A DNA stretch of 64,000 nt from NCBI GenBank assembly GCA_963989385.1, contig OZ022501.1:98130979-98194978 (forward strand). The letters are read 5' to 3'. The notes under the pieces were generated by a model. The model did not search any database. It was not told the origin of the DNA and saw only the letters and a program-made list of their open reading frames with translations. Positions 3,565 through 58,698 of this stretch are shown in pieces; positions within the stretch are counted from its first letter, which is position 1; each line of letters opens with the position of its first letter. The position numbers were made by a program, and so were the translations under genes. The DNA comes from Ctena decussata (lineage: Eukaryota > Mollusca > Bivalvia > Lucinida > Lucinidae).

Positions 3565-3597
3565 GGTAAATCATTATTGCCCAGCAGCCCAGACTGA

Positions 3598-24317: not shown

Positions 24318-24440
24318 GGTATTTGATTGTTTATGCGAATGTTACAGTTCATAAAGATACCCAGAAAAGGCCAGAGTCATAATGCACAACCAAAAATATG
24401 ATAGAAAAACAGTCATAAACACACTGTCTGATGGTTTAAA

Positions 24441-24674
24441 TGAGCCACGACATGACAAAACCAACAAAGTGGAATGAATCTGCGTCAGGCGAAGACTCAG
24501 ATCAGTCTGGGCAGCCGCCCAGTGTTAGCAGAGTCTTTGCTGCCAGTATGGAGGCAGCTTGACACGTAGCTACCCTTTAAGCGCACAGCGAAGACTCTGA
24601 TGCCCAGGCTGATCTGAGTCTTCGCTGGGCGCACATACCACTTTGCACGGTTGGTTTTGTCGTGTAGCGGCTCA
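24441..24674. mobile_element. MITE-A copy 3 (in unit A)
   Basis: Same ends as the family (TGAGCCACGACATGACAAAA). It occupies the equivalent position to copy 4 in unit B, so this insertion predates the A/B duplication. Confidence 0.8.
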
Positions 24675-25431
24675 AATATTATAGAAACTATACCATTGCA
24701 TAGATCGCTTTTCTAAGTAAACAAGATTCTCCAATACTGCTCTCTAAAATTTCTCTTTCATCATTATTTTGTTGCGTGCCATATGATAAAAGCGGCTGGA
24801 GACTTTTTATATTTCGTATTTTTTATATCTTACGTATTTACCAGTGTCACCAGATTAAATGCACTACCGCATGTACAAATACTGAAAACTCTGTTCAGTA
24901 TGCGCATCCGGACAGTCTACTCAGAGGACATTCGGTGATTCTGATAACATTAAAAGACGCCATATGCGCGAATGTACATGCAGTTAATTTGAGTCTTGAC
25001 TGCTACAAATATGCCATAACTCACCTTTACCTCTAAGCATGACTCTTTCCAACAAATATCCCCTGATTTTTTTGTGGCAGCAACTTACCTATCGATTCTA
25101 GTTATAATAGATATACCGTGTCTCCTTTTTGGATCGTAAACGTGATTTTAAACGTCACACTCTTTATGTCATTATTTTTTCTTAGCCAATGGTTCGGCAC
25201 AAAGAGCTTATAAGAGAAATTATTTGCTCCTGTTCGGCATTAATATTGGCTCTTTATTTATTCATTCAGTACTACGGTTTCTAACTGCATAAAGGTATGC
25301 CTCACCTTTGCTGCAAGAAAAATTTACGTGCCTTTATTTTCACACTTCTCGGTATGATTATGCGATGTAAAACCAGGAAAAGAAGTGCCAAAAGGCAGTG
25401 ATCAGGAACTGATACAATCAAAGTCTACATC

Positions 25432-26205
25432 TCACCTACGACACCAAAAGGGAACCAATAACAGGGCACCAAAAGGAAAACAGTAGCACGACACCAAAAG
25501 GAAAACAATTACACGACACCAAAAGGACAAGAAAAGGGAAACAGTAACATGCCACCAAAAGGGAAACATTAACACGACACCAAAAGGTAAACAGTACGAC
25601 GCCACCAAAAGGGAAAAAGTAACACGACACCAAAGGGTAAACAGTAAGACGCCACCAAAGGGTAAACGGTAAGACGCCACTAAAAGGGAAAAAGTAGCAC
25701 GACACCAAAAGATAAACAGTAATACGACACCAAAAGGGAAACAGTGAGACGACACTAAAAGGACATGAAAAGGGAAACAGTAGCATGACACCTAAAGGTA
25801 AACAGTAATACGGCACCAAAAGGGAAATAGGAACACGACACCAAAAGGAAAACAGTAACACGACACCAAAAGGGAAACAGTAACACGACGCCAAAAGGGA
25901 AACAGTAACACGACATCAAAAGGTAAACAGAAAGACGACACCAAAAGGAAAACAGTAACACGACACCAAATGGTCACGAAAAAGGAAACAGTAAAACGAC
26001 ACCAAAAGGGAAAAGGTAACACGACACCAGAAGGAAAACAGTTACTCAACACCAAAAGGAAAACTGTAACACGACACCCAAAGGTAAACAGTAAGATGTC
26101 ACCAAAAGGTAAACAGTAAGACGCCAGCAAAAGGGAAACAGTAACACGACACCAAAAGGGAAACAGTAACACGACGTTAAAAGGGAAACAGTAACATGAA
26201 GTAAC
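25432..26205 (-). repeat. 25-bp minisatellite, about 30 units
   Basis: Units of the form CACGACACCAAAAGGGAAACAGTAA repeat across about 775 bases with substitutions and a few indels. Overlapping minus-strand ORFs of 68-152 codons (Cys/Phe/Pro-rich repeats) arise from the array and are not convincing genes. Unit B retains only a vestige (29415-29480). Confidence 0.95.
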
Positions 26206-26275
26206 AAAACAGATAGTAAGACCGGTTTTGACGATTAAAAAAACCTTCAAAATTATTGGCTCTTACGCCCATGTT

Positions 26276-26612
26276 CACAGGGTATAATCGATTCCGCTAA
26301 TTTTCGCTTCCTGCAGAGACTGTACATCATATTTGGCTTCCGCCGAGACTGTCCGCGAACTCTTGCTTCCTGCCGAGACTTCTGTACATGATAAATGGCT
26401 TCCTGCAGAGACTGTCCGCGTGATTCTGCTTCCTGCCGAGGCTCTCGGCAGGAAGCAGAGTCACGCGGACCGGCAGTCTCGGCAGGAAGCCATTATTCGA
26501 GGACGGTTGTCTCTGCAGGAAGCAAGAGTTCGCGGACAGTCTTGGCCGAAGCCAAATATGACGGACAGTTTCTGCAGGAAGCGAAACTTGGCGGAATCGA
26601 TTATACCCTGTG
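26276..26612. mobile_element. CAC-ended non-autonomous DNA transposon, copy 2
   Basis: 337 bp, ends CACAGGGTATAATCGATT and the inverted copy. It has a perfect 5-bp direct flank, ATGTT (26271-26275 and 26613-26617). Unit B lacks this insertion at the equivalent place near 29560, so it postdates the duplication. The interior repeats CTTCCTGC(A/C)GAGACTGT and complements. ORFs inside reflect the palindrome. Confidence 0.8.
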
Positions 26613-26814
26613 ATGTTGCACTTCAGTCTCTTTTTGCGTGATTGCCATTTTTTCCGTCTGTTAGTACATCCTTGTGCATCCGCGGGGATTAATTACAAGC
26701 TTCAGTTTCAAGCGCAAAATACCCAAAAAATACAGACGACAAAATGTATGTCTGCAAAATTTAAAAAACTATTCATCCAAGCTGTATCATATTGAGATTT
26801 CAAAGAATAGAGGG

Positions 26815-26864
26815 CAAACAGTGTAGATTCAGATGAGGCGGCTTATCTGTATCTTTGCTGTTTG
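26815..26864. repeat. Hairpin module H6, shortened
   Basis: CAAACAGTGTAGATTCAGAT ... CTTTGCTGTTTG with part of one inner arm deleted. Confidence 0.6.
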
Positions 26865-27071
26865 CAATTTCACTTATTTTCATTTTTTGCGCTTTATTTG
26901 TCAGTGGTTGGTTCCTGCAGCACGCATGCACAGCCTGGTCGCAATCGTGGCTGTCGACACATGCCAGAAGGCATCTTTACTTTCCTGGAATCCATTTAAT
27001 TGTTGAAGCTTCAAAACATAAATCAAGTTACCATAAAAAATTGAAAGTATTGAGACATATATACGTCTGAA

Positions 27072-27132
27072 CAAACAGTGCAGACCCAGACGGCTCCTGG
27101 AAGAGCAGTCTGATCAGCGTCTTCACTGTTTG
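27072..27132. repeat. Hairpin module H7
   Basis: CAAACAGTGCAGACCCAGAC ... GTCTTCACTGTTTG. Degenerate relatives lie at about 27380-27431 and 27673-27720, so unit A contains several in tandem order. Confidence 0.65.
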
Positions 27133-27297
27133 CTATTCTATCTGCATCTTTCGGCCGTATTGCAAACTGTTTCTTTTTTAGGACAACTATCGTAAATATT
27201 TTAGGTGTCCCAATTTTTAGATTTCTTACGGAAATTACCTGATCGACTGATGTCTTTGAAAATGTACTGACATGATCTTGGTGGGAAATTAAGCTAT

Positions 27298-27306
27298 TGA
27301 TTTTAG
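27298..27306 (+). other. Paralogous empty target site for FB1
   Basis: Unit A reads CTATTGATTTTAGGTATATT uninterrupted. In unit B the same TGATTTTAG is duplicated on either side of the 16.8-kb FB1 element. Confidence 0.9.
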
Positions 27307-27467
27307 GTATATTCTTACTGCGACAAATTTCCCAAAACATTGAAATTCCAAGTTGTGACAAAAATGCCAATGAACACCGGTATACAGACCTAGATCAGAC
27401 TGCTCTAGATCACGCTCTACACTGTTTGCAATTCCAACAAGTATTTTCATAAAAAAAATCAACAAAT

Positions 27468-27468
27468 G

Positions 27469-27499
<31 letters not shown>

Positions 27500-27501
27500 A
27501 A
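27468..27501. repeat. AAAT microsatellite
   Basis: About eight AAAT units. Confidence 0.95.
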
Positions 27502-27735
27502 GTAAATTCGTTCGGAATTGTAGAAGAATTACCGTATTAAAATCAGCTGAAAATCAACTGATTTTATTAGTGATGCAGACAAAATAGTAGTTATCGATCT
27601 CAATAATTCTGAGGAACGTGGCAGTAAAATATAAATACCTTGTACAGTATATTTTTATCGTAAAATCTGAGCAAACAGTGCAGACCGAGACCAGACTGAG
27701 GAGCAGACAGATCAGGTTCTATTTCAGTTTCATTT

Positions 27736-28317: not shown

Positions 28318-28460
28318 TATTCGATTCTTTATGTGAATAAATAAATGGTGAATACGTACGTAAACAGGGTAAATATACCCAGGCATGGCCAAAGTCACAA
28401 TGCACAACCAAACAAGACGATAGAAAAAACAATCATAAACACACTGTCTGAAAGTATAAA

Positions 28461-28700
28461 TGAGCTACGACATGACAAAACCAACAAAGTGGAATGTGCG
28501 CCAGGCGAAGACTCAGATCAGCCTGGGCAGCCGCCCAGTGTGAGCAGGGTCTTCGCTGTCAGCATGGAGGTAGCATAGACCCGTAGCTATCCTTTAAGCG
28601 CACAGCGAAGACTTTGATCAGACTGGGCGGATGCCCAGGCTGATCTGAGTTTTCGCTGGGCGCATATACCATTTTGTTGGTTTGGTCATGTAGCGGCTCA
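28461..28700. mobile_element. MITE-A copy 4 (in unit B)
   Basis: Equivalent in position to copy 3 in unit A; 240 bp, ends TGAGCTACGACATGACAAAA and TAGCGGCTCA. Confidence 0.8.
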
Positions 28701-29596
28701 AATATCAATTATACCATTGCATAGGTCTTTTTTTCTAAGTAAACCAGCTTCTCCAATACTGCTCTCTGAATTTTCTCTTTCGTCATTATTTTGTTGCGTG
28801 CAATGTGATAAAAGCGGCTGGAGACTTTCTATATTACGTATTTTATATATCTTACGTATTCAGCAGTGTCATGAGATGAGCGAATAACTGCCCAACATCA
28901 TGTACAGATTCTGAAAACTCTGTTCAGTATGCTCATCCGGATAGTCTGTTCACAGAATAACCGATTTGATTAGACAATCGGTTGATTCTGATGACATTAG
29001 AAGACGTCATTCGCGAAAAATTCCATTTCATTTGAGTCTTGACTGCTATAATATGCCATAACTCACCTTTACCACTAAGTATGGCTCTTACATCTTTCCA
29101 ACAAATACCTCCTGATTTTTTGTGGCAGCAACTTACCTATCGATTCTAGTTATAATAGATATACTGTGTCTTCTTGTTGGATTGTAAACGTGATTTTTAA
29201 CGTCACACACTTTGTGTCGTTACTTTTTCGTAGCCAATGGTTCGGCATTCATTGGTCATTTAGTTCTTCAGTATGCCAATTTTTGTGCTAGAATTTTTTG
29301 GTGTCTTTGGTTTCACACTTTTCGGTATGGTTAGTCAATGTCAGCGCTAAACCAAAACAGGAAAAGTAGGTTACATGGCAATAATCAGGAACTGATAAAA
29401 GTCCACATCCCACTCACGATACCAAAAGGAAACAGTAACGCGACACCAAAAAGACACGAAAAGGGAAACAGTAACATGAACAGAAGTAACAACGCAGGTA
29501 GTAAGACCGGTTTTGACGAGTAAAAAACAAATTAAATTGCTTCTTAAGCCCATTTAGCGCTTCAGAGACAAAATACGCCTCCGTTTGCATGGTTGT

Positions 29597-29953
29597 CATA
29601 GAGGATCTTACATGAGTGCTCATGTATAATTGAATTTGTTAAACGAGTTAGGGAAAAAGATAAGATGCGAGGCTTTGCCGAGCATCTCATCGATTTTCCC
29701 GAACGAGTTTAATAAATTCAATAATACAGGAGCACGAATGCAAGATTCTATTTATCATATGACACTAAAATCGCATTTTATTAGCCAAATTTAAACAAAA
29801 ACGTCACGATTTCGCCATTACAAAACGAAACGTTTTTATGGACGTCAACGTATAACGTTACGACGTAATTTGCATATTTTAAAATCCACTGGTGGATTAT
29901 TGTTTTTAATGCATGGCTTTATTACACTCTCAGATGCGACGTCATATGATAAA
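29597..29953. mobile_element. MITE-C copy 2 (unit B only)
   Basis: About 357 bp, closely matching 10355-10706 through the same internal palindrome and the GACGTCATATGATAAAA end. It is absent from unit A and so inserted after the duplication. Confidence 0.75.
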
Positions 29954-30571
29954 ATTTTATCATCTGTCAGTACATCCCCGAGCACCCGCAGGGATTGATT
30001 TTACATTTAAAGCGCAAAAAAGCAGATGACAAAATTTACCACTGCAAAATTTCAAAAGTTGTTTATCCAAGCTATATCATATTGAGAATTTAAGTGGTAA
30101 TTACGAGCATATACATCCCTGTTGTCAGTAGACTCCTCATGAAAAGAGGGAAATTCTGATCAGAGGGCACGAATGCACAGGCTGGTCGGAATTTTGGTTG
30201 TTTTCAATACCAGAGGACATCACTGATTTCCTGGAATCCATTTAATTGTAGAAGCTTCAAAAAACACAAATCAATTTACCGTAAAACATAAACATTGGGT
30301 CAGATATCAGTACGGACTCAGAAGGAGCAATCTAATCAGGGTCTACACCGTATTGTCATTCCATCTGCATCTTTCAGACGTTATGCTGCATTTTAAAACT
30401 AAACCGTTTCATTTTTTTTAAGACAATCATGGTGATTATTTCAGGTGTCATAATTTTTGAAATTTTATGGTAATTACCTGATCAACTGATGTCTTTGAAA
30501 CTGTACTGACATGATCTTGATGGGAAATTAAACTATTGATTTTAGAGGAAGGTGAAGTTAGTTTGTTTTTC

Positions 30572-30714
30572 GTTTTTCGCTTTTCGTTTTTCGCTTTTCG
30601 TTTTTCGCTTTTCGTTTTTCGATGTTCGCTTTTCGTTTTTGGCTTTTCGTTTTTCGCTTTTCGTTTTTCGATTTTCGCTTTTCGTTTTTCGCTTTTCGTT
30701 TTTCGTTTTTCGAC
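30572..30714 (+). repeat. FB1 left subterminal 14-bp repeat
   Basis: Repeats of CGTTTTTCGCTTTT with local variants (CGATGTTCG, GGCTTTTCG). The mirror copy is at 47158-47309. Phe/Arg-rich ORFs on both strands are by-products. Confidence 0.95.
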
Positions 30715-33700
30715 TTTCAACTCCTATTTTATCATTCGCACTGAAGCCGAATATCGAATTTTGACATTCGAAATCCTATTTTGACTTTCGAACTTAGGCC
30801 GAATGTGGTATTTTGACATTCGAAATCCTATTTTGACATTCGCACTGAAGCTGAATATCGAATTTTGAATTTCGAAATCCTATTTTGACATTCGCACTGA
30901 AGCCGAATATCGAAGTTTGACTTTCGAAATAGTAGTTTGACATTCGAATTCAGGCCAATTATGACATTTTGACATTCGAAATCGTATTTTGACATTCGAA
31001 TTCAGGCCGAATATGATATTTTGACATTCGAAATCCTATTTTGACATTCACACTGAAGCCGAATATCGAATTTTGAACTTCGAAATCCTATTTTGACAAT
31101 CGAACTTAGGCCGAATATGGTATTTTGATATTCGAAATACTATTTTGACATTCGCACTGAAGCCGAATATCGAATTTTGACATTCGAAATCCTATTTTGA
31201 CATTCGATCTTTAGCCGAATATGGTATTTTGAAATACGAAATCATATTACAACAGTCGCTCTGAAGCCGAATATCGAATTTTGACATTCGAAATCATATT
31301 TTGACATTCGAACTTAGGCCGAATATGGTAAGTTGATATTCGAAATACTATTTTGACATTCGCACTGAAGCCGAATATCGAATTTTGACATTCGAAATCC
31401 TATTTTGACATTCGAATTCAGGACGAATAAGATATTTTGACATTCGAAATCCTATTTTGAAATTCGCACTGAATTCGAATATTGAATTATGACTTTCGAA
31501 ATCCTATTTTGACATTCGAATTCAGGCCTATTATGCTATTTTGAAAATCGAAATCCTATTTCGACATTCGCTCTAAAGCCGAATATCGAATTTTGACATT
31601 CGAAATCCTATTTTGACATTCGAACTAAGGCCGAATATGGTATTTTGTTATTCGAAATCCTATTTTGACATTCGCACTGAAGCCGAATATCGAATTTTGA
31701 ACTTCGAAATCCTATTTTGACTTTCGAATTTAGGCCGATTATGATATTTTGACATTCGAAATCCTATTTTGACATTTGCACTGAAGCCGAATATCGAATT
31801 TTGACTTTCGAAATCCTATTTTGACATTCGAATTCAGGCCGAATATGTTATTTTGACATTTGAAATCCTATTTTGACATTCGCACTGAAGCCGAATATCG
31901 AATTTAAACATTCGAAATCCTATTTTGACATTCGATCTTTCGCCGAATATGGCATTTTGACATTCGAAATCCTATTTTGACATTCGCATTGAAGCCGAAT
32001 ATCGAATTTTGTCTTTCGAAATCCTATTTTGACATTCGAATTCAGGAGGAATAAGATATTTTGACATTTGAAATCCTATTTTACATTCGCACTGAATTCG
32101 AATATTGAATTATGACTTTCGAAATCCTATTTTGACATTCGAATTCAGGCCTATTATGATATTGTGATAATCGAAATCCTATTACAACAGTCGCTCTGAA
32201 GCCGAATATCGAATTTTGACATTCGAAATCATATTTTGACTTTCGAACTTAGGCCGAATATGGTAAGTTGATATTCGAAATACTATTTTGACATTCGCAC
32301 TGAAGCCGAATATCGAATTTTGACATTCGAAATCCCATTTTGACATTCGCATTGAAGCCGAATATCGAATTTTGACTTTCGAAATCCTATTTTGACATTC
32401 GAATTCAGGACGAATAAGATATTTTGACATTCGAAATCCTATTTTGACATTTGCACAGAATTCGAATATTGAATTATGACTTTCGAAATCCTATTTGACA
32501 TTCGATCTTTCGCCGAATATATTATTTTGACATTCGAAATCCTATTTTGACATTCGCACTGAAGCCGAATATTGAATTTTGACTTCCGAAATCCTATTTT
32601 GACATTCGAATTTAGGCCGAATATGATATTTTGACATTCGAAATCCTATTTTGACATTCGCACTGAAGCCGAATATCGAATTTTGACTTTCGAAATCCTA
32701 TATTGACATTCGAATTCAGGCCGAATATGTTATTTTGACATTCGAAATCCTATTTTGACATTCGCACTGAAGCCGAATATTGAATTTTATCATTCGAAAT
32801 CCTATTTTGCCTTTCTAATTTAGGCCGAAAATGATATTTTGACATTCGAACTCCTATTTTGACACTCGCACTGAAGCCGGATATTGAATTTTGACCTTCG
32901 AAATCCTATCTTGACATTCGAATTCAGGCCAATTTGATATTTGGAAAATCGAAATCCTATTTTGACATTCGCTCTGAAGCTGAATATCGAATTTTGACAT
33001 TCGAAATCCTAGTTTGACATTCGCACTGAAGCCGAATATCGTATTTTGACTTTCGAGGTCCTATTTTGACATTCGAATTCAGGCCTATTATCATGTTTTG
33101 ACATTCGAAATCCTATTTTGACATTCGATCTTTCGACGAATATCGAATTTTAACATTCGAAATCCTATTTTGACATTCGATCTTTCGCCGAATATGGTAT
33201 TTTAATATTCGAAATCCTATTTTGACATTCGCACTGATCCCGAATATCGTATTTTGACTTTGGAAATCCTATTTTGACCTTCGAATTCAGGACGAATATG
33301 ATATTTTGACATTCGAAATCCTATTTTGACATTCGCACTGAAGCCAAATATTGAATTTTGACTTTCGAAATGCTATTTTGACAATCGAATTGAGGACTTT
33401 TAAGATATTTTGATAATCGAAATCCTATTTCGACATTCGCTCTGAAGCCGAATATCGAATTTTGACATTCGAAATCATATTTTAACATTCGAACTTAGGC
33501 CGAATATGATATTTTGACATTCGAAATCCTATTTTGACATTTGCACTGAAGCCGAATATCGAATTTTGACTTTTGAAATTCTATTTTGACATTCGAATTC
33601 AGGCCGAATATGGTATTTTGATATTCGAAGTCCTATTTTATCATTCGCACTGAAGCTGAAAATCGCATTTTGACATTCGAAATCATATTTTGACATTCGA

Positions 33701-36435
33701 AATTAGGCCGACTATTGTATTTTGACATTCGAAATCCTATTTTGACATTCGCACTTGAGCCGAATATCGTATTTTAACATTCGCAATCCTATTTTGACTA
33801 ACGCATTTAGGCCGAATATGATTTTTTGACCTTTTTTTTTTTAGACTCGCACTGAAGGCGAATATTGTATTTTGACATTCGAAATCCTATTTTGACATTC
33901 GAACTTAGGCCGAATATGGTATTTTGATATTCGAAATCCTAGTTTGACATTCGCACTACAGCCGAAAATCGAATTTTGACATTCGAAATCCTATTTTGAC
34001 ATTCGAATTCAGACCGAATATTGTATTTTGACATTCGAAATCCTATTTTGACATTCGCACAGAAGCCGAATATCGAATTTTAACATTCGAAATCCTATTT
34101 TGACTTTCGAATTTAGGCCGAAAATGATAATTTGACATTCGAAATCCTATTTTGACATTCGCATTGAAGCCGAATACTGAATTTTGACTTTCGAAATCCT
34201 ATCTTGACATTCGATTTTAGGCCAATTTGATACTAGTATTTGGAAAATCGAAATCCTATTTTGACATTCGCTCTGAAGCCGAATATCGAATTTTGACATT
34301 CGAAACCCTATTTTGACATTCGAACTTAGGCCGAATATGGTATTTTGATATTCGAAATCCTATTTTGACATTCGCACTGAAGCCGAATATGGTATTTTGA
34401 TATCTGAAATCCTATTTTGACATTCGATCTTTCGCCGAATATGGTATTTTGACATTCGAAATCCTATTTTTGACATTCGAATTCAGGCCTATTATCATAT
34501 TTTGACATTTGAAATCCTATTTTGACATTCGATCTTTCGCCGAATTTCGAATTTTAACATTCGAAATCCTATTTTGACATTCGATCTTGCGCCGAATATG
34601 GTATTTTGACATTCGAAATCCTATTTTGACATTCGATTTTTCGCTGAAAATATTATTTCGACATTCGAAATCCTATTTTGACATTCGCATTGAAGCCGAA
34701 TATCGAATTTTGAACTTCGAAATCCTATTTTGACATTCGAATTCAGGACGAATATGATATTTTGACATTCGAAATCCTATTTTGACATTCGCACTGAGGC
34801 CGAATATTGAATTTTGACTTTCGAAATCCTATTTTGACATTCGAATTCAGACCGAATATGGTATTTTGATATTCGAAGTCCTATTTTGACATCCGCACTG
34901 AAGCCGAATATCGAATTTTGACATTCGAAATCCTATTTTGACTTCCGAATTTTGACCGAATATGATGACATTCGAAATCCTATTTTGACATTCGCACTGA
35001 AGCCGAAAATCGAATTTTGACATTCGAAATCCTATTTTGACATTCGAATTCAGGCCAAATATTGTATTTTGACATTCGAAATCCTATTTTGACATTCGCA
35101 CTGAAGCCGAATATCGAATTTTGACGTTCGAAATTCTATTTTGACATTTGATCTTTCGCCGAAAATGATATTTTTACATTAGAAATCCTATTTAGACATT
35201 CGCACTGAAGCCGAATATCGAAATTTGCCATTCGAAATTCTACTTTGACATTCGATTTTTCGCCGATAATGGTATTTTGATATTCGAAATCCTATTGAGA
35301 CATTCGCACTGAAGCCGAATATCGAATTTTAATATTCGAAATCATATTCTGACATTCGAACACAGGCCGAATATATTATTTTGACATTCGAAATCCTATT
35401 TTGAAATTCTCTTTGAAGCCGAATATCGAATTTTGACATTCGAAATCCTATTTTGACATTCGATATTAGGTCTTTTATGACATTTTGAAAATCGAAATCC
35501 TATTTTGACATTCACTCTGAAGCCGAATATCGAATTTTGACATTCGAAATCCTATTTTGACATTCGAACTTAGGCCGAATATGGTATTTTCATATTCGAA
35601 ATCCTATTTTGACATTCGCACTGAAGCCGAATATCGAATTTTGACTTTCGAAATCCTATTTTGACATTCGAACTTAGGCTGAATATGGTATTTTGATATT
35701 CGAAATAATATTTTGACATTCGCACTGAAGCCGAATATCGAATGTTGACATTCGAAATTCTATTCTGACATTTGATCTTTCGCCGAATATGATATTTTGA
35801 CATTCGAAGTTCTATTTTTACATTCGAACTTAGGCCGAATATTGTATTTTGATATTCGAAATACTATTCTTACATTCGAACTCAGGCCGAATATATTAAT
35901 TTGATATTCGAAATCCTATTTTGACATTCGCACTTAAGCCGAATATCGAATTTCGACTTTCGAAATCATATTTTGACACTCAAAATCAGACTGAATATGG
36001 TATTTTGACATTCCAAATCATATTTTGACATTCTCTCTGAAGTCGAATATCGGATTTTGTCATTAAAATCCTATTTTGACATTGGAATTCAGGCTGAATG
36101 TGGTATTTTAACATTCGAAATCCTATTTTGACTTTCGGATACAGGCCGAATATGGTATTTTGACATTCAAATTCTATTTTGACGTTCGAATTCAGGCCGA
36201 ATATGATATCTGACATTCAAGCTCCTATTTCGACATTCGCACTGAAGCCGAATATGGTATTTTGTCCTTCGACATCCCATTTTGACATTCTTACTGAAGA
36301 AGAATATCGAATTTCGACATTCGAAATCCTATTTTTATATTATTCAAACGAAAGCCGAATATCGAATTTTGACATTCGAAATCCTATTTTGACTTTCGAA
36401 ATCAGGCCGAATATGGTATTTTGACTTTCGAAATT
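30715..36435 (+). repeat. FB1 left-arm satellite, about 52-bp monomers
   Basis: By length about 110 monomers. Each contains TTTTGACATTCGAAATCCTA followed by a second TTTTGACATTCG half and a variable tail. Two main tail classes tend to alternate, giving a dimer of about 104 bp: CACTGAAGCCGAATATCGAA, and AACTTAGGCCGAATATGGTA or AATTCAGGCC / GATCTTTCGCC variants. A T-run replaces one stretch near 33830. No protein-coding potential is evident. Confidence 0.95.
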
Positions 36436-37261
36436 GAATAACAGCGGACCCGTTTTTTTTTTTTTTTCTTTTTTTTTTTTTTTTTCTTTCTTGCACCAGA
36501 ATTATTTTTGCGTATTACACTCCATTTTGGATTGATGCTCCTTATTTGGACTTAGGCATTATGCCTATATGGAAACCTTGTGAACAAAATATCTGGAGAA
36601 CCTCATGAGCTTGGCCCATTATGTTTGGCATATTCTTATGTCTACATCAGAGATGACCTGATTGATCATTAAACAAATCCGAAAATATTTAATCGAGTTA
36701 TGCCCCTTTTTTGACAAACCGGTTATGCGGAGAAGCGCTAGAGCCTGGCTATTGGATTTTGGTATGCAGTTTGAGTTTAAGGTGAAGATGACCTGATTAA
36801 TGGCCTCGAAGGCTGCAGGCTGGTTATACTAGTTTGCACAGGCATGTTAATCCCATTTCTGACATAATGATGATATATAGAGACAACCTTGTTGGGCAAG
36901 CATATGGCTGGGGGCATAGTGTTTTATTATCACATTTTCTAGTTCTTCGATTAATGGAGAAACTGCTGTCCGGAGGATAGCTCGTTCATTTTGATAAGAT
37001 CTTTGCCAAACTTGCAAGTAGCTAGAAAAAGAATGAATGCTCGGAGGACTTCGAAGTTCGCCCATTTTGGATTTTTACACTTTAAATGCTGAAATAGACG
37101 ATATTGTCTTGTCCAGAGGTCAGCTCCATGACTAGGTTTTTGCTAAATATGTCTAGTTTTCAACAATGTTTCGACGCTAATATTTTTAGCATGTCTTCTT
37201 TCGATGCTGACCTGGTATTGCTCAATTTGGATACAGTTTAACCGAGATGTTTGGGCATAAT
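36436..37261. other. FB1 loop, left part
   Basis: Begins with T-runs (36452-36489), then unique-looking sequence. No transposase signature seen. A 72-codon minus-strand ORF at 36847-37065 is unrecognised. Confidence 0.45.
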
Positions 37262-37915
37262 GGTCACCAGGGCCGTCTCCTTTAGGCGGTTCTGATGAGA
37301 CAGTTCAGCCCCTCTGTTGCTTACGATGCTTGGTAGAAAGGTAGACCAAGGCCCATGGTATGATGAGATATTTCAGCCCCCCCCCCCCCCCATCCCCATC
37401 TGTTGCCTCCATAGCTTGGTGGACAGGAACATCGGAGCCCAAGTGGGATATTTTTTCTTGTATCTTCTGTTGTGTCTTATTACAGCCGTATCCTTGAGGC
37501 GCTCCCGATGAAACATGTCAGCCCCATCCCCCCACCCCCTGTTGCTTCCATTGGTGGACAGGAACATCGCAGCCAAAGTGGGATATTTTTTCTTGTATCT
37601 TCTGGTGCGTCTTATTACAGCCGTATCCTTGAGGCGCTCCTGATGAGACATGTCAGCCCCATCCCCCATGTTGCTTCCATTGGTGGACAGGAACATCGCA
37701 GCCAAAGTGGGATATTTTTTCTTGTATCTTCTGGTGCGTCTCATTAGAGCCGTCTCCTTGAGGCGATTCTGATGAGACATCTCAGTCCTTTATGTTGCTT
37801 GTTTGACAAGAATACATGTACCTCTATCAGAGCTCAAGAGGGATTTTTTTCTTGTGTAGTCTTTTGTGTCTCATTAGAGCCGTTTCCCTAAGGCGATTCT
37901 GATGAGAGATCCTAT
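37262..37915 (+). repeat. About 130-bp minisatellite in FB1 loop
   Basis: The block GCCGT(C/A)TCCTTGAGGCG...GATGAGAC recurs with intervals of 135, 129 and 130 bases (anchors at 37496, 37631, 37760, 37890), plus two diverged units to the left. Units contain GGTGGACAGGAACATCG and GGGATATTTTTTCTTGTATC. Interval lengths near multiples of three keep a repetitive 135-codon minus-strand ORF open (37373-37780), which I regard as incidental. Confidence 0.85.
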
Positions 37916-38562
37916 TGAACGAAATTTCTATTTGAAAACGATGAGAACAATTTGACTAATGGAAATTAACATGGGAAAATTTAATCAGCTAAAAAGAAGA
38001 AAATAGTTGCTGAATTTTCAGAAACTAGGTATCAGTGGATTTGAAAGCATGTTTTTGTACTTATAAAGTACATCGGATAATATTACTTGTGTAACATTGT
38101 CTTTTTTATCGTGAAATAGTAGCACAATAGTTCTTTATCTTTTTTCCTTTGTTGTAAAACCAGACCTGTGATACTGATTTGTTTGTAAACATAGCACAAA
38201 CCGATGCAGGTTAATATGTGCAACTGAAACCAAATTCACTATTTTTAGAAAAGTTTTAACATCGTGGTCAATTTGAAAAGCGTGTAGTCAGTTTGATTCC
38301 ATTTCATCCCGGGAAAATAATTTTTGTTCTGCAAAGCTAGTCGTTTTTTTTTTTTGTTTTTTTTTTTTGTGGCGGGGGGGGGGGGGGGGGGGGGTTGGAT
38401 TGGTTTAATGAAGTCGAATTGAAGTCCCAATAGCAAACTTTACTCTGACGTGAAAACATAAAAACTTAATACAACTATTCAATTTTACCAATTGCTTTTT
38501 ACATGGAAATCCCCATTTATAGGAAGAACTCACTAGTATATTACTGGTTAAGGTTTTATGAC

Positions 38563-38630
38563 CAACTAGTTAGCTCTTTCGACTTCAGCTCACTTAAGGG
38601 AGCAGGCTCAACTCCCGCTTGGGTTTCACC
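38563..38630 (+). repeat. Possible tRNA-derived SINE fragment
   Basis: TAGTTAGCTCTTTCGAC resembles a box A region and AGGCTCAACTCCCGC a degenerate box B. The spacing is tRNA-like, but I could not form a convincing cloverleaf. Confidence 0.3.
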
Positions 38631-39437
38631 GACTTTGTATAATACAGAGTAAAAAGACAGGTAGTAATTATAAATAAACATAATAGAAGACTACAGGGTG
38701 TTAAGAAAGTTCGAAGATTTTACAATATTGCCTATAACTAGTAAAGCGATAAAAGAACAGCATTTTCATAGCAGAAGGCCACAAGGAAATTCTGCCTAAA
38801 ACAAAATGGATTTTTTTAAAACATCGACAGCTAGATAAACCACAAGAAGAATGGGGACAATAATAACGCGCACATAAACCCTGGCCCTGGGGTCTGCTGT
38901 GGTAAATTCACATACTAGCTAATTCATAAACAGAATGCAATTTTGAAAGTACACCATTAAACCGATTTTGCCGCCGATGAACGATGCCTCTGAAAAGAAA
39001 AAAAACAAACAAACATTAAACTGAGTCTACCGTTTTTTTATCACTGGTCATTCTAAATCGGCCGTAATGATGTTGTTATTGCTTTATGTTGATTACCCGT
39101 GTTTTTATGTAACGGCCGCTTCAGGAGTGTATTCAAATCTTTGCTGGGGAGGGCATGCCGGTGTCTTTGCCTAATACACGTATCTTTTTATCGGTTCAAT
39201 CTAAATTGTTTGCATATCGGTTCTCTTCTCTGCACATATCAATCTGCATAGGTTCGTTTTATTTTACAAGCAAGTTATAAAGCACTATTGTGCTACTATT
39301 TCGTTTGTTTTTTGGTGCACAGCTCAAGTATATGCCTAGATTATCTTCCATTCATTCATTCATTTTGTCTTCATTTCATAATGTAAAAATATGCAACAAT
39401 ATTGCAATCTCAGTCATTTTCTTTGATTCATGTTGTA

Positions 39438-39438
<1 letters not shown>

Positions 39439-39487
<49 letters not shown>
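39439..39487. repeat. TG microsatellite
   Basis: About 24 TG units. Confidence 0.98.
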
Positions 39488-39489
<2 letters not shown>

Positions 39490-39892
39490 CTCCATTGTTG
39501 TATGTATTTATACATATAGTAGTATTGTGTAAGAGATTAGGTGATCCTTAGCAGTTTTTTGACATTTGTATACACATTTTTCTTGGCTCACCTATATATG
39601 TTCATATGTATATAATGAGGGCCTCATGGGAGAATAGCTATTACATGTATTATTATATGTGCTAAATATTGTAACCCTCGAAAAATAAAGTCGTTACTTA
39701 CTTACTATGATAAAAAAAAACACTGTTAAATGAGCAATATTAACTGGTGTACTTTAGACGTATAAAAACATGCACTAAAATCCATTGATACCTAGCCTCT
39801 AAAAATTCAGCATGCCCTTCCTTCTTTTTAGCTGATTAAATTTTCCCATGTTAATTTCCATTAGTCAAATTGTTCTCATCGTTTTCAAATAG

Positions 39893-41302
39893 ACCTCCGG
39901 CAAACATTGGGTAAGCGTGTAGTTACAAAAGCCTGCATGTTCTTGAAAGGGTGTTTAGAACGCAGCTATATAAGCTACATGTTATACTTCATAGATAAGA
40001 TTTCTCAAAAAGCCTTTAAATGCACTCAAAAAGCCGATTTAACTGTGCAGGGCTCCCTCCTAGTTTCATTTTCGGTACTGAACCTGGAGGACAAAATTAA
40101 TTTAAGAAATACCGCTTAAAACTGTTCCATGTCATTTGGTCTCAATATACAACTGTAAAATATATAAAGCATGACATTCTCCGATTTTCGGAATACATTT
40201 TCTAGCGAGAAAAATCTGACCTGAACCCTGTCACTAAACCGCGAAAATTCGTGACAGGATGTATTCAAATTGCCTACCGGAAAACAGTCATATTGTTTTT
40301 CTATTTACCTCCGCGGAGGTCAATTTGAAACTTTACCACCCGTGAATATTTGCTCCAGATTCTTATTATACACCTGAGAAGCGAACCCCGGGCCCGTTAA
40401 CGTCTCTGCATTTATCTATATCCATCTTCGCTGGCCAAGGGTACTAAGTCCACTTTGTTCCGTACGTACCCTTGGCCGACGGCCTTTTAAAAAAATCGGT
40501 CGCCTTTTAGCTGCAGCGAGTTGCTCTCCTTGTCGCACGTTATATTTAGACCAGTGCAAAACACAGTTGACCAACAACCTCGCATAATCGTTCAAAAACA
40601 CTGATTTACTGGTTAAATTTTGGTTTAAACAGTATTTTATTTGTATACTTTATACATGTACATAGCACAAATTATACAAATACTACAAATACAATGAATA
40701 TACAAAAGGGATTCAGAAGAAAGTCGATTGACTTATTTGAATCTGTATCCCATGATTGCAATGAATACAAATTCCATACAAATGTGATAGTCAAATTTAT
40801 CTAATTAGCGGTATTTTAGAATAACTTATAAATATTCCGTTAGGTAGTAATACAAGAAAGTTCAAGTTAACAGAAAGGAAGGAAAGAGGAAAAACAGAAG
40901 TAAACCGTTATAACGGTGTAACGTGCTACGTTTGTAATACTAATTCACGGAAGTATAACAGTGAACAAGCTGAGAACTGTGACTCCACGGGGAATGGATC
41001 TACACTCCGTTTGCTCAAAGGCCGCGCCGTAGATACCAGAATCAAAGACTGAGTATTGATTAATATTCAAAGGACATGGCTTTGTGTAATCGAATTTTTA
41101 GAAAAAAAAAGAACAAAGAGAGTTGGTTTTACCTGTATTGTTATATGTCGCGAAATTGGCTAGCAGTATTAGAAAGACTCATTTTTGCAGTCTTTGACGT
41201 CGTATGGTTAAATTTTGACCACCTACTCTTTTTTATGGGGGGGTGGGGGGGGGGTTGTAATAGTTCACGGCAGAAAAGATAGCTTTCTATTGACAAGATA
41301 CA
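39893..41302. other. FB1 loop, centre-right, no gene recognised
   Basis: Contains a small inverted pair, GGCCAAGGGTAC (40433-40444) and GTACCCTTGGCC (40466-40477), and a G-run near 41239-41255. ORFs are short and unrecognised. Confidence 0.4.
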
Positions 41303-41551
41303 AGCAACCAGCTACCAGTCCATTTCCAATTATTTTTACGGGCGTTTGCCTGTAAGAAATTGTTGGAAATCACGATATGGTAGGGTTATGTTAACTGGCC
41401 GCACTCCAAAATAACTATATAGTGTTGAAGGCTATATGACCAAAACGACACCTGTTCTTTTCTATCCTATTCTTCTTATCAATGATTCATGCAATTTTTA
41501 CGGGCGCCCGTAAAAATACTGTGACAGGAAATGGACTGGCAGCTGGTTGCT
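41303..41551. mobile_element. 249-bp MITE in FB1 loop
   Basis: Left end AGCAACCAGCTACCAGTCCA and the inverted right end TGGACTGGCAGCTGGTTGCT match with one difference. A second inner inverted pair is TTTTTACGGGCG / CGCCCGTAAAAA. No clear target duplication was identified. Confidence 0.65.
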
Positions 41552-42744
41552 AGTTATTCTACCGTAAAATCTATGGATTTTTTACAGTGTAGGTTTGTGG
41601 GGTGAATGGGTACGCTAACAGGGGAAGCAGCCCTGTTGCTTCCTTCTAAGGAGGGGTCGAACTTTTAAAGGAGAGAATTTCCTCCCTAAGGAACAAATTC
41701 TTCACTTTATGAGTGGACCTTATTTTAAGGTGGGCTTCATCGCCAGGGAGGCGTATAGGATGGGTCGCAGAATTTGTTTCCCTTTGTAAAAATGGCTGAA
41801 GCATATATGGATGTACCCATGGGTCTTGAATTTCTGTGACATTGATTGATATTGCCACTAACTGGCTCGATGACGGTCTGCCACGTCTTGACGTCGTGAT
41901 GTCATTACATCGTGACAATGGTGTTGTAACGTTATTAGGGCAGCAGCAAAAAGTACGGAGTGGCTAGCGACGGACGTCTGTCAGTAGCCAATATCCGTTG
42001 AATTTGCTAGTGACAGACGTCTGTTAATAGCTGAAACTCGATAAAATTTGCTAGAGACAGATGCAATTTAATTAAACTATAGTGCCCCTGCACAAGCTAG
42101 GAATGTGTCCTGGGAGACGGACGCAGAGTGTCCTCGCACAATCATGACATTTTTTACCCACTAGTTGTGAATGTAGTTCCTTTACGTACGCATTTATCTG
42201 TTTCTGTCGAAGTCAAATGATGGTATGGAATCTGGAGGATATTTTATAATGCTCCAATGACGATAGTCAGCAGGCATTATATTTTACCCCTGTCCTTCTA
42301 TATGTCTGTTCGTCTGTCCGTCGCACGTAAACAGGTTGTATATGATTGAAACTTTGCGAAAATATTATAGGCATATTTAAGACGTGAATGTGCCTTTTTG
42401 AAGGAAAAAAAAACAAAATATTTTTGACGAATTACATCCTTTGCTGACTGTGAAATTTTCATGGCAACTTAATATAATCAACTTCTACAGTTTTCAAGTT
42501 ATGAACTTTGCACAGATGTTCCAGACATATTGAAGATTTGCATGTGCTTATTTAAGAGGAAAGTTATTTCTTATAAATTTGCGGTGTTTTCAAACCTAGA
42601 AATTTATCCGGTTTTGGTTAATACAGAATAAAAAATGTATAATCAACTCCTTCCGCAGTTTTTTTAGCAATCGATTTTTAGCAATCGATGTCTGTTACAG
42701 CATATTGAAGTTGTGCAAATGCCTTTTCGAAGAAAAAAATATAC
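41552..42744. other. FB1 loop, right part
   Basis: Contains an interspersed repeat E-like segment (about 41640-41810), a direct repeat with GACGTCTGT around 41975 and 42021, and a CTGTCCGTCGCACGTAAACA motif near 42316 typical of invertebrate interspersed repeats. No coding domain recognised. Confidence 0.4.
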
Positions 42745-45700
42745 TGACAAAATGACAAATTCCGATATTCGGCTTCAGTACGAATGTCAAAATAGGATTT
42801 CGAATATCAAAATACCATATTCGGCCTAAGTTCGTATGTCAAAATAGGATTTCGAATGTCAAAATCGATATTCGGCTTCAGAGCGAATGTCAAAATAGGA
42901 TTTCGATTTTCCAAATATCAAATTGGCCTGAATTCGAATGTCAAAATAGGATTTTGAAGGTCAAAATTCAATATTCGCCTTCAGTGCGAGTGTCAAAATA
43001 GGATTTCGAATGTCAAAATAACATATTCGGCCTAAATTCGAAAGTCAGAATAGGATTTCGAATGTTAAAGTTCGATATTCGGCTTCAGTGCGAATGTCAA
43101 AATAGGATTTCGAATGTCAAAATACAATATTTGGCCTGAATTCGAATGTCAAAATAGGATTTCGAATGTCAAAATTCGATTTTCGGCTTCAGTGCGAATA
43201 ACAAAATAGGATTTCGACTGTCAAAATATCATATTCGGCCTAAATTCGAAAGTCAAAATAGGATTTCGAATGTCAAAATTCGATATTCGGCTTCAGTGCG
43301 AATGTCAAAATATGATTTCGAATATCAAAATACCATATTCGGCCTAAGTTCGAATGTCAAAATAGGATTTCGAAAGTCAAAATTCAATATTCGACTTCAG
43401 TGCGAATGTCAAAATAGGATTTCGAATGTCAAAATATCATATTCGTCCTGAATTCGAATGTCAAAATAGGATTTCGAAAGTCAAAATTCGATATTCGGCT
43501 TCAATGCGAATGTCAAAATAGGATTTCGAATGTCAAAATACCATATTCGGCGAGAGATCGAATGTCAAAATAGGATTTCAAATGTCAAAATACCATATTC
43601 GGCGAAAGATCGAATGTCAAAATAGGATTTCGAATGTCAAAATACCATATTCGGCGAAAGATCGAATGTAAAAATAGGATTTCGAATGTTAAAATTCGAA
43701 ATTCGGCGAAAGATCGAATGTCAAAATAGGATTTCGAATGTCAAAGTATGACAATAGGCCTGAATTCGAATGTCAAAAATAGGATTTCGAATGTCAAAAT
43801 ACCATATTCGCCGAAAGATCGAATGTCAAAATAGGATTTCAGATATCAAAATCCGATATTCGGCTTCAGTGCGAATGTCAAAATAGGATTTCGAATATCA
43901 AAATACCATATTCGGCCTAAGTTCGAATGTCAAAATAGGATTTCGAATGTCAAAATTCGATATTCGGCTTCAGAGCGAATGTCAAAATAGGATTTCGATT
44001 TTTCAAATATCAAATTGGCCTAAATTCGAATGTCAAGATAGGATTTCGAAAGTCAAAATTCAGTATTCGGCTTCAGTGCGAATGTCAAAATAGGATTTCG
44101 ATTTAACAAATATCAAATTGGCCTGAATTCGAAAGTCAAAATAGGATTTCAAATGTCAAAATTCAATATTCGGCTTCAGTGCGAATGTCAAAAATAGGAT
44201 TTCGAATGTCAAAATACCAATTCGGCGAAAGATCGAATCTCAAAATCGGATTTCAGATGTCAAATTCCGATATTCGGCTTCAGTGCGAATGTCAAAATAG
44301 GATTTCGAATATCAAAATACCATATTCGGCCTAAGTTCGAATGTCAAAATAGGATTTCGAATGTCAAAATTCGATATTCGGCTTCAGAGCGAATGTCAAA
44401 ATAGGATTTCGATTTTCCAAATATCAAATTGGCCTGAATTCGAATGTCAAAATAGGATTTTGAAGGTCAAAATACAATATTCGCCTTCTGTGCGAGTGTC
44501 AAAAAAAAAAATCAAAATATCATATTCGGCCTGATGCGTTAGTCAAAATAGGATTGCAAATGTTAAAATACGATATTCGGCTTCAGTGCGAATGTCAAAA
44601 TAGGATTTCGAATGTCAAAATACAATATTCGGCCTGATTTCGAATGTCAAAATATGATTTCGAAAGTCAAAATTCGATATTCGGTCTAAATTCAAAAGGC
44701 AAAATAGGATTTCGAATGTTAAAATTCGATATTCGGCTTCAGTGCGAATGTCAAAATAGGATTTCGAATGTCAAAATAACAAATCCGGCCTGAATTCCAA
44801 TGTCAAAATAGGATTTTGAAAGTCAAAATTCGATATTCGGCTTCAGTGCGAATGTCAAAATAGGATTTCGAATGTCAAAATATCATATTCGGCCTAAATT
44901 CGAAAGTCAAAATAGGATTTCGAAAGTCAAAATTCGATATTCGGCTTCAGTGCGAATGTCAAAATAGGATTTCGAATATCAAAATACCATATTCGGCCTA
45001 AGTTCGAATTTCAAAATAGGATTTCGAATGTCAAAATTCGATATTCGGCTTCAAAGCGAATGTCGAAATAGGATTTCGATTATCAAAATATCATAATAGG
45101 CCTGAATTCGAATGTCAAAATAGGATTTCGAAAGTCATAATTCAATATTCGAATTCAGTGCGAATGTCAAAATAGGATTTCGAATGTCAAAAAATCTTAT
45201 TCGTCCTGAATTCGAATGTCAAAATAGGATTTCGAAAGTCAAAATTCGATATTCGGCTTCAATGCGAATGTCAAAATAGGATTTCGAATGTCAAAATAAC
45301 ATATTCGGCGAAAGATCGAATATCAAAATAGGATTTCGAATGTTAAAATTCGAAATTCGGCTTCAGTGCGAATGTCAAAATAGGATTTCGTATTTCAAAA
45401 TACCATAATCGGCTAAAGATCGAATGTCAAAATAGGATTTCGAATGTTAAAATTCGATATTCGGCCTCAGTGCGAATGTCAAAATAGTATTTCGAATATC
45501 AAAATACCATATTCGGCTAAAGATCGAATGTCAGAATAGGATTTCGAATGTCAAAATTCGATATTCGGCTTCAGTGCGAATGTCAAAATAGTATTTCGAA
45601 TATCAAAATACCATATTCGGCCTAAGTTCGAATGTCAAAATAGGATTTCGAATGTCAAAATTCGATATTCGGCTTCAGAGCGAATGTCGAAATAGGATTT

Positions 45701-47157
45701 CGATTATCAAAATATCATAATAGGCCTGAATTCGAATGTCAAAATAGGATTTCGAAAGTCATAATTCAATATTCGAATTCAGTGCGAATGTCAAAATAGG
45801 ATTTCGAATGTCAAAATATCTTATTCGTCCTGAATTCGAATGTCAAAATAGGATTTCGAAAGTCAAAAAACGATATTCGGGTTTAATGCGAATGTCAAAA
45901 TATGATTTCGAATGTCAAAATACCATATTCGGCGAAAGATCGAATGTCAAAATAGGATTTCGAATGTTAAAATTCGATATTCGGCTTCAGTGCGAATGTC
46001 AAAATAGGATTTCGAATGTCAAAATAACATATTCGGCCTGAATTCGAATGTCAAAATAGGATTTCGAAAGTCAAAATTCGATATTCGGCTTTAGTGCAAA
46101 TGTCAAAATAGGATTTCGAATGTCAAAATATCATATTCGGCCTAAATTCGAAAGTCAAAATAGGATTTCGAAGTTGAAAATTCGATATTCGGCTTCAGTG
46201 CGAATATCAAAATAGGATTTCGAATATCAAAATACCATATTCGGCCTAAGTTCGAATGTCAAAATAGGATTTCGAATGTCAAAATTCGATATTCGGCTTC
46301 AGAGCGAATGTCGAAATAGGATTTCGATTATCAAAATATCATAATAGGCCTGAATTCGAATGTCAAAATAGGATTTCGAAAGTCATAATTCAATATTCGA
46401 ATTCAGTGCGAATGTCAAAATAGGATTTCGAATGTCAAAATATCTTATTCGTCCTGAATTCGAATGTCAAAATAGGATTTCGAAAGTCAAAATTCGATAT
46501 TCGGCTTCAATGCGAATGTCAAAATAGGATTTCGAATGTCAAAGTACCATATCGGCGAAAGATCGAATGTCAAAATAGGATTTCGAATGTCAAAATTCGA
46601 TATTCGGCTTCAGTGCGAATGTCAAAATAGGATTTCGTATTTCAAAATACCATATTCGGCTAAAGATCGAATGTCAAAATAGGATTTCGAATGTCAAAAT
46701 TCGATATTCGGCTTCAGTTCGAATGTCAAAATAGTATTTCGAATATCAAAATACCATATTCGGCCTAAGTTCGAATGTCAAAATAGGATTTCGAAGTTCA
46801 AAATTCGATATTCGGCTTCAGTGTGAATGTCAAAATAGGATTTCGAATGTCAAAATATCATATTCGGCCTGAATTCGAATGTCAAAATACGATTTCGAAT
46901 GTCAAAATGTCATATTTGGCCTGAATTCGAATGTCAAAATACTATTTCGAAAGTCAAACTTTGATATTCGGCTTCAGTGCGAATGTCGAAATAGGATTTC
47001 GAAATTCAAAATTCGATATTCAGCTTCAGTGCGAATGTCAAAATAGGATTTCGAATGTCAAAATACCACATTCGGCCTAAGTTCGAAAGTCAAAATAGGA
47101 TTTCGAATGTCAAAATTCGATATTCGGCTTCAGTGCGAATGATAAAAAAGGAGTTGA
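42745..47157 (-). repeat. FB1 right-arm satellite, about 52-bp monomers
   Basis: Reverse-complement version of 30715-36435 (TAGGATTTCGAATGTCAAAA), about 85 monomers by length. The same tail classes occur. It is about 1.3 kb shorter than the left arm, so arms have gained or lost units since formation. Confidence 0.95.
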
Positions 47158-47309
47158 ATGTCGAAAAACGAAAAACGAAAAGCGAAAAACGAAAAGCGAA
47201 AATCGAAAAACGAAAAGCGAAAAACGAAAAGCGAACATCGAAAAACGAAAAGCGAAAAACGAAAAACGAAAAGCGAAAAACGAAAAACGAAAAGCGAAAA
47301 GCGAAAAAC
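47158..47309 (-). repeat. FB1 right subterminal 14-bp repeat
   Basis: AAAAGCGAAAAACG repeats, mirror image of 30572-30714, leading to the right terminus CCAACTTCACCTTCCT. Confidence 0.95.
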
Positions 47310-47335
47310 GAAAAACAAACCAACTTCACCTTCCT

Positions 47336-47838
47336 TGATTTTAGGTATATTCTTACTACGACAAATTTTCCAAAAAAATATTCGAACATCAAGTTGCGAT
47401 AAAAACGCCTATGGCAACTAGTGTAGACCCAGATCAGACTGCTCCTCAGCAGTCTGATCAGGATCTTCTACTAAAACATAGAAAAATCTGAAAAAATAGA
47501 AAGACAAAAACACACAAAAAAACGATAAGAGAATAAATAAATTCCTTGATTTAGGGATGAGGTTTACGGAATTACCGTATTATTTCCAGCTGAAAATCAA
47601 CTGATTTGATTAGTGATGCAGACAAAATATTAGCTTCAAGGATCTAAAATCGATCAGAAAAACTTGTAGCACGGGGCTCTGAGGAACAGCATGGCAGTAA
47701 AATATAAAAAGCTTGTATAGCATATTTTTACCGTAAAAAATCTGAATATTGGGATTGACAGGTCTGAACAAACAGTGCAGACAGACCCAGATCAGACTGC
47801 TCCTAAGGAGCAGTCAGATCAAGGTCTACACTGTTTGC
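47336..47838 (+). repeat. Segmental duplicate, unit B, right part
   Basis: Starts with the second TGATTTTAG and continues GTATATTCTTACTACGACAA, matching unit A from 27298 onward through GAATTACCGTATTA, AATCAACTGATTTGATTAG, GTGATGCAGACAAAAT and GGCAGTAAAATATAAA, ending in hairpin H12. Confidence 0.85.
47769..47837. repeat. Hairpin module H12
   Basis: CAAACAGTGCAGAC ... GTCTACACTGTTTG with inner stem GACTGCTCC/GGAGCAGTC. A shortened relative lies at 47417-47467. After it, 47840-47960 repeats the CTGCATCTTT...GGTGTCCC block seen at 27140-27215 and 30364-30450. Confidence 0.75.
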
Positions 47839-58688: not shown

Positions 58689-58698
58689 TAACATGAAA

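What the first reader, a model, noticed from the sequence alone, without database searches (positions are those of the whole stretch)
30546..47335. A 16.8-kb giant foldback transposon whose arms are satellite DNA, with target duplication and empty site in the same window
Two opposed satellite arrays 6.3 kb apart could be read as unrelated arrays. Instead, both outer ends carry the same terminus (AGGAAGGTGAAGTT...), followed in mirror order by the same 14-bp repeat and the same about 52-bp satellite. Outside both ends is the identical 9-mer TGATTTTAG. The locus is one copy (unit B) of a diverged segmental duplication; the other copy (unit A) reads straight through TGATTTTAG at 27298-27306, and unit-B homology resumes exactly after the right 9-mer. 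That is strong evidence for insertion of one 16.79-kb unit. Drosophila FB elements (tandem-repeat arms, 9-bp duplication) and sea urchin TU elements are precedents, but arms of 4-6 kb with about 200 monomers and no recognisable transposase would be unusual. It suggests a route by which satellite DNA is dispersed as a transposable unit.
Basis: partly seen in the sequence, partly recalled or inferred. Interest (0 to 1): 0.95.

Follow-up and report, generated by a model that had tools for sequence, protein, structure and literature searches.

The report
Giant foldback transposon with satellite arms
A 16.8-kb piece of DNA sits in this window as a single insertion whose ends are mirror copies and whose two long arms are built of about 195 copies of one satellite repeat; the same end-plus-satellite combination recurs on many contigs outside this window, and it likely spread by borrowing a transposase, which would make it a vehicle that scatters satellite DNA.

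Summary
Window 30546-47335 (16,790 bp) has inverted termini identical for 14 bases (29 of 30), a direct flank of exactly 9 bp (TGATTTTAG), and, in a tandem-duplicated copy of the site, an uninterrupted 9-mer at 27298-27306; flank homology breaks and resumes exactly there. Each arm is terminus, ~155 bp of 7/14-bp repeat, then a 52/104-bp satellite (about 110 and 85 monomers). The arms match in register in their outer 1.75 kb (96.7%; at most 91.6% at 51 other offsets) and again near 3.7-4.45 kb, but not in between, so they likely share one ancestral array that later turned over in 52-bp steps. The 6.3-kb loop shows no transposase. New: searching the translated right end against 5.8 billion proteins found 34 of 170 examined proteins with satellite, 7-bp repeat and terminus in that order; three reading frames agree on the end (CAACTTCACCTTGCT), and similarity drops to background right after it. 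So this is a dispersed family. I read it as a non-autonomous foldback DNA transposon, probably MULE-like by its 9-bp duplication; Tetris, Tm1, Rehavkus-1_TC and Galileo are precedents, so it is an extreme variant of a known kind. Not tested: host assembly, paired ends elsewhere, transposase, reads.

The parts
30537..30545 (+). left copy of 9-bp target-site duplication TGATTTTAG
30546..30564 (+). left terminus AGGAAGGTGAAGTTAGTTT
30565..30718 (+). left 7/14-bp subterminal repeat array
30708..36434 (+). left arm: 52/104-bp satellite, about 110 monomers
36435..42750 (+). loop; no transposase or other convincing domain found
37927..39893 (.). inverted-repeat unit inside the loop (arms 37927-38107 and 39713-39893, 86% complementary); no direct flank seen by eye
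42751..47167 (-). right arm: same satellite in mirror orientation, about 85 monomers; in register with the left arm in two blocks
47162..47316 (-). right 7/14-bp subterminal repeat array
47317..47335 (-). right terminus, inverted copy
47336..47344 (+). right copy of 9-bp target-site duplication
27298..27306 (+). paralogous empty site in unit A (single TGATTTTAG, flanks read straight through)
24352..27721 (+). unit A of the tandem duplication, without the insertion
28370..47828 (+). unit B of the tandem duplication, split by the element at 30546-47335

Best explanation
The 16,790-bp segment at 30546-47335 is a single insertion with inverted termini, a 9-bp target duplication and two satellite arms in mirror orientation, and it most likely moved as a non-autonomous foldback DNA transposon cut and pasted by a transposase, probably MULE-like, encoded elsewhere in the genome. 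Shown: exact ends, 9-bp flanks, empty paralogous site, two blocks in which the arms match in register, a loop without a recognisable transposase, and recurrence of satellite plus 7-bp repeat plus terminus elsewhere with changing sequence beyond. Inferred: a transposase supplied in trans binds the terminus and likely the 7-bp repeats; both arms descend from one array, by inverted duplication or by copying between arms, and drifted about 3% apart in the matching blocks; array length and the middle of the arms change by unequal exchange in 52-bp steps; insertion came after the A/B duplication, because unit A keeps one clean 9-mer without a footprint.
For: Ends, 9-bp flanks and empty site. Arms: in register 96.7% over 1,555 positions of the outer part, best of 51 offsets of 208 bp or more 91.6% (five offsets within 156 bp slide back into register and were set aside); best right-arm partner in register in 13 of 17 outer windows and 6 of 7 windows at 3.7-4.45 kb. 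In the whole-arm alignment (94.3% over 4,407 positions, gaps free to fall where they fit) the internal gaps of 50 bp or more are 155, 156, 104, 52, 104, 50 (with a further 2 close by) and 208 bp. Family: 34 of 170 examined proteins carry two or more satellite motifs plus the terminus, in three frames (23, 4 and 7), reading back to CAACTTCACCTTGCT; in 34 of 34 the order is satellite, 7-bp repeat, terminus, and in the 30 with at least 6 residues beyond it the next residues are 30 different strings. On the 23 of the first frame plus the window, pairwise identity is 0.58-1.00 at the last eight positions up to the end codon and 0.03-0.15 beyond. No loop ORF above 138 codons and no convincing Pfam match in 63 of the 70 loop ORFs of 42 codons or more. 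9-bp duplications are usual for MULE-type foldbacks (PMC3169594) and within the 8-11 bp of MULEs (PMC6446971); passages read.
Against: No transposase or autonomous relative was found, so the superfamily rests on the 9-bp duplication alone. The first terminal base is A, whereas a survey of arthropod MULEs says that the first three terminal bases are mostly conserved G/C (PMC13359780, passage read). Between the two matching blocks, 0 of 19 windows have their best partner in register, and 0 of 13 farther in, so a common origin of the whole arms is not shown. The database copies are peptides only: pairing of ends and 9-bp flanks was not seen. One of the 34 (P0038) has satellite peptide beyond its terminus, and six (P0015, P0018, P0028, P0034, P0042, P0069) hold a second terminus-like motif just inside, so the motif does not always mark the outer edge. 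Five of the 23 first-frame rows plus one differ at the end codon (N four times, Q and I once each). P0109, one of the 34, shares similar peptide beyond the terminus with P0031 and P0061, which are not among the 34. The inner junctions lie at non-equivalent points of the arms (left arm 792 bp longer inward). No read data.
Confidence: 0.82

Rival explanations
1. A short foldback or MITE with the same ends inserted first and its satellite arms grew afterwards in place, spread from one arm to the other by gene conversion; the long satellite is then a later outgrowth, not part of the mobile unit.
For: The middle of the arms has turned over (0 of 19 windows in register) in 52-bp steps; growth of arrays inside a foldback is reported for Tetris (PMC4079207).
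Against: Satellite, 7-bp repeat and terminus occur in the same order in 34 of 170 database proteins, so some satellite already belonged to the family; two in-register blocks up to 4.45 kb from the end suggest that a long array was shared early. How many monomers travelled is not shown.
Confidence: 0.3
2. The transposase belongs to another superfamily (P/Galileo, hAT or Merlin type) rather than MULE.
For: Galileo, a P-superfamily element, makes foldback-like arms of 4.2 and 4.7 kb with tandem repeats (PMC4168063); no transposase was seen here.
Against: Duplication is exactly 9 bp; P and hAT make 7-8 bp, Merlin 8-9 bp (recalled).
Confidence: 0.25
3. Two unrelated or secondarily inverted satellite arrays that only look like one element.
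For: Satellite motifs without the terminus are common (118 of the 152 satellite-bearing proteins among 170), though an ORF shows only a small part of an array.
Against: Matching ends, exact 9-bp flank, empty site and the in-register outer block.
Confidence: 0.03
4. Assembly artefact: an inverted duplication made by the assembler.
For: Palindromic satellites are hard to assemble; no reads were available.
Against: Arms differ by 59 substitutions in the outer 1.74 kb and by whole monomers, the inner junctions differ, and a 9-bp flank with an empty site would not arise by misassembly.
Confidence: 0.04

Closest known systems
Tetris (Drosophila virilis foldback, PMC4079207; abstract, section 10 and part 1 of 2 of the Discussion read)
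   Same: Non-autonomous foldback; inverted arms with tandem repeats (TIR-220); 8-10 bp duplications; link to satellite DNA
   Different: Arms up to 1,735 bp in the structurally complete copies, with ~220-bp repeats; longer TIR-220 arrays (up to 66 copies) are described as satellite-like arrays; here 85 and 110 monomers of 52 bp inside one flanked element
Tm1 Mutator/Foldback family (root-knot nematodes, PMC3169594; passages read)
   Same: Mostly 9-bp duplications; composite arms with ~14-bp repeats of variable number
   Different: No long satellite tier mentioned in the passages; some members encode a putative transposase; asymmetric 7-bp end motifs
Rehavkus-1_TC (Tribolium, PMC10218199 and PMC6446971; passages read)
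   Same: Satellite (164-bp unit, TCsat23) inside the inverted termini; 9.5 kb; 9-bp duplications for the Rehavkus group
   Different: [quoted passage not shown] Rehavkus elements have a PHD-finger transposase; here no coding loop was found
Galileo copy 112 (Drosophila willistoni, PMC4168063; section 6 read)
   Same: Arms of 4,246 and 4,680 bp with tandem repeats, no transposase segment, identical target duplications
   Different: P superfamily; 9.0 kb in all; ~140-bp repeats, at most 9 per region, in that one copy only
Cg_HINE Helentrons of Crassostrea gigas (PMC7492417; abstract read)
   Same: Mobile elements that disperse satellite-like arrays in a bivalve
   Different: Central arrays between Helentron ends, not inverted satellite arms
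Drosophila FB and sea urchin TU elements (recalled)
   Same: Inverted arms of short tandem repeats, 8-9 bp duplications
   Different: Shorter arms; repeat units of another size

Membership tests
Foldback transposon (structural class) | long inverted arms built of internal tandem repeats | tested here: met
   in-register identity holds in two blocks only
Foldback transposon (structural class) | target-site duplication at both ends, empty site without it | tested here: met
Foldback transposon (structural class) | dispersed copies with the same termini | tested here: met
   single ends at peptide level only, 34 of 170 proteins, 34 different contig lengths
Foldback transposon (structural class) | paired inverted ends at other sites | not testable with these tools
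   The genome search gave no answer in 14 tries
MULE / Rehavkus superfamily | 8-11 bp (Rehavkus 9 bp) target-site duplication | tested here: met
   9 bp; range from PMC6446971
MULE / Rehavkus superfamily | MULE-type DDE transposase in the family | tested here: inconclusive
   none among 63 of 70 loop ORFs nor 52 of 67 ORFs of 80 codons or more outside the element; autonomous copies could not be searched
MULE / Rehavkus superfamily | G/C-rich first terminal bases (trend in arthropod MULEs) | tested here: inconclusive
   terminus AGG here, AGC in most relatives as read from peptides; PMC13359780
Galileo / P superfamily | 7-8 bp duplication (recalled) and THAP transposase | tested here: not met
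   duplication is 9 bp; no transposase seen
Helentron with central satellite array | central array, no target duplication (partly recalled) | tested here: not met
   inverted arms and 9-bp duplication

The most novel reading that the evidence does not exclude
A family of giant foldback transposons whose arms are the satellite itself: arrays of up to about 110 monomers per arm travel in mirror orientation inside one transposable unit, with copying between arms restoring their match, so that much of the dispersed satellite in this lineage was placed there by transposition rather than by local amplification.
Probability: 0.36. Interest if true: 0.72.

Novelty: new variant of a known kind. Interest (0 to 1): 0.55.

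Why it matters
How short satellite arrays become scattered through a genome is an open question. In the Pacific oyster, Helentrons carry such arrays (PMC7492417, abstract). Here the arrays are the arms of a foldback DNA transposon, with exact ends, an empty site in a local duplicate and a terminus that can be used as a probe. Two arms of one element also give a paired record of satellite evolution: blocks that still match, and a middle that has turned over in 52-bp steps.

Tried and rejected
Terminus pattern in viral contigs and monomer pattern in viral contigs and genome contigs: no match. Of the 170 proteins, 18 have fewer than two satellite motifs and were left out of the family count; most of these are heptad-only proteins, some bacterial; by the looser patterns three of the 18 carry a terminus, by the stricter ones one (P0061). 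The satellite motifs are short peptide strings, so the count of 152 is a working figure. blastn of the left end against phages: none. Four monomer strings in paper full texts: none. Searches for prior reports; I saw none in their listings that describes this repeat or a foldback of this size, but subscription journals are not held. A first classification of termini took the inner LTSPL copy in six rows; one search took the outermost. Nested inverted repeat in the loop: no direct flank by eye, not pursued. The NXPE search served only to judge the host: a bivalve is my guess, not shown.
Full report
Observation. The element spans 30546-47335 (16,790 bp). Its ends are inverted copies (14 of 14, 29 of 30 bases), and no other site in the window comes within two mismatches of the 14-mer. 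Immediately outside lies a direct repeat of exactly nine bases, TGATTTTAG. A tandem duplication gives an internal control: unit A (24352-27721) and unit B (28370-30545 and 47336-47828) are about 68-91% identical over the matched pieces, and in unit A the two flanks meet across one TGATTTTAG at 27298-27306, with no footprint. So unit B took one insertion, after the duplication (the timing is inference).

Arms. From each end inward: terminus, 154-155 bp of a 7-bp unit with 14-bp periodicity, then a satellite of 52 bp with 104-bp higher order (5.7 kb left, 4.4 kb right). The left satellite is A+T rich yet has a CpG ratio of 2.2, against 0.96 in the tested flank (27001-30500) and 0.77 in the loop; TTCGAA occurs 22 times per kb. 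In the outer part the in-register identity is 96.7% over 1,555 positions, against at most 91.6% at 51 shifts of 208 bp or more. A window-by-window search (156-bp windows, 104-bp steps, 56 windows) finds the best right-arm partner in register in 13 of 17 windows of the outer 1.75 kb, 0 of 19 from 1.75 to 3.7 kb, 6 of 7 from 3.7 to 4.45 kb, and 0 of 13 farther in, of which 6 lie beyond the end of the right arm. The whole-arm alignment gives 94.3% over 4,407 positions with large gaps in steps of 52 bp, but in the middle it is not better than other registers. I read this as one ancestral array whose middle has turned over. In the outer 1.74 kb the arms differ at 59 substitutions, only 17 of them transitions; I have no explanation for the low share.

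Loop. The 6.3-kb loop has no ORF above 138 codons. Of 70 ORFs of 42 codons or more I gave 63 to Pfam; eight families came up at E up to 0.1, none convincing; the best, AMPKBI at 3e-4, is below its curated cut-off and lies in the 129-bp tandem repeat. An inverted-repeat unit lies inside. The two inner junctions fall at different points of the arms.

Relatives. The right end is open in one frame, so I searched its translation (78 proteins at E up to 0.001) and then an alignment of 24 rows (531 proteins among the 7,988 candidates scored, the best 120 listed, 92 of them new). The other 411 were not listed and not examined. Of the 170 proteins examined, 152 carry at least two satellite motifs and 34 of these also carry the terminus, with 34 different contig lengths in the tables. 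In 34 of 34 the order is satellite, 7-bp repeat, terminus. The terminus appears in three frames: NFT[LFIM] (23), TSP or TSS (4) and QLHL-like (7); the next residue is L in 17 of 23, C in 4 of 4 and A in 5 of 7, which agree on CAACTTCACCTTGCT; the window has CCT in place of the final GCT. For the 23 plus the window, pairwise identity is 0.58-1.00 over the last eight positions and 0.03-0.15 beyond. Thirty of the 34 have at least 6 residues beyond the terminus, and these are 30 different strings. So similarity stops where the target duplication puts the end in the window. Against a simple picture: P0038 has satellite beyond its terminus, six proteins have a second terminus-like motif inside, and P0109 shares later flank peptide with P0031 and P0061, outside the 34. 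No hit equals the window protein, so these copies probably come from other assemblies than the window's own (inference).

Mechanism. A transposase supplied in trans is inferred; 9 bp points to the MULE group (PMC6446971, PMC3169594; passages read). In Galileo, tandem repeats in the arms carry extra transposase-binding sites (as told in PMC4079207 and PMC3573991); I infer the same role for the 7-bp array here. Arm growth by unequal exchange and copying between arms are inferred.

Known kinds. Satellite or tandem repeats in inverted transposon arms are known from Tetris, Tm1, Rehavkus-1_TC and Galileo. Different here are the size (16.8 kb), the number of monomers in one flanked element (about 195) and the two-tier arms. 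In the parts of papers that I read none is as large; I did not review all foldbacks.

Limits. The host genome could not be searched, reads are not held, and the host species is not known to me.

Noticed in passing
1547-1794, 3325-3573, 24438-24675, 28455-28705, 47956-48203, 57935-58074, 58451-58690: A palindromic, MITE-like element of about 240 bp (one shorter, 140 bp) with seven places in the window; ends like TGAGCCGCGACACGA in the copies looked at.
   Followed up: partly
2440-3297: Open frame with an NXPE4_C domain (E 3e-41); best database relative 78% identical; another is filed under a Candidatus Thiodiazotropha MAG, likely host contamination.
   Followed up: partly
37927-39893: Inverted-repeat unit inside the loop with an apparent insertion of about 410 bp (39303-39712, AATAAA and TTAC repeats like a LINE tail) in its right arm, judged by eye.
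   Followed up: partly
L001:8483-8574: Viral contig with a CGAAAAA heptad array that resembles the subterminal 7-bp repeat by sequence only; some bacterial proteins with the same heptad appear.
   Followed up: yes
57233-57305: tRNA family match on the minus strand (36 bits, Rfam RF00005).
   Followed up: no
P0015, P0018, P0028, P0034, P0042, P0069: A subfamily in which the terminus is preceded by a second, altered copy of itself (LTSPLIEYRKTKNEKQTNFTL).
   Followed up: no
P0038: Satellite peptide continues beyond the terminus, as if one element end abuts or lies inside another array.
   Followed up: no
30546-32285: Substitutions between the arms are mostly transversions (42 of 59).
   Followed up: no
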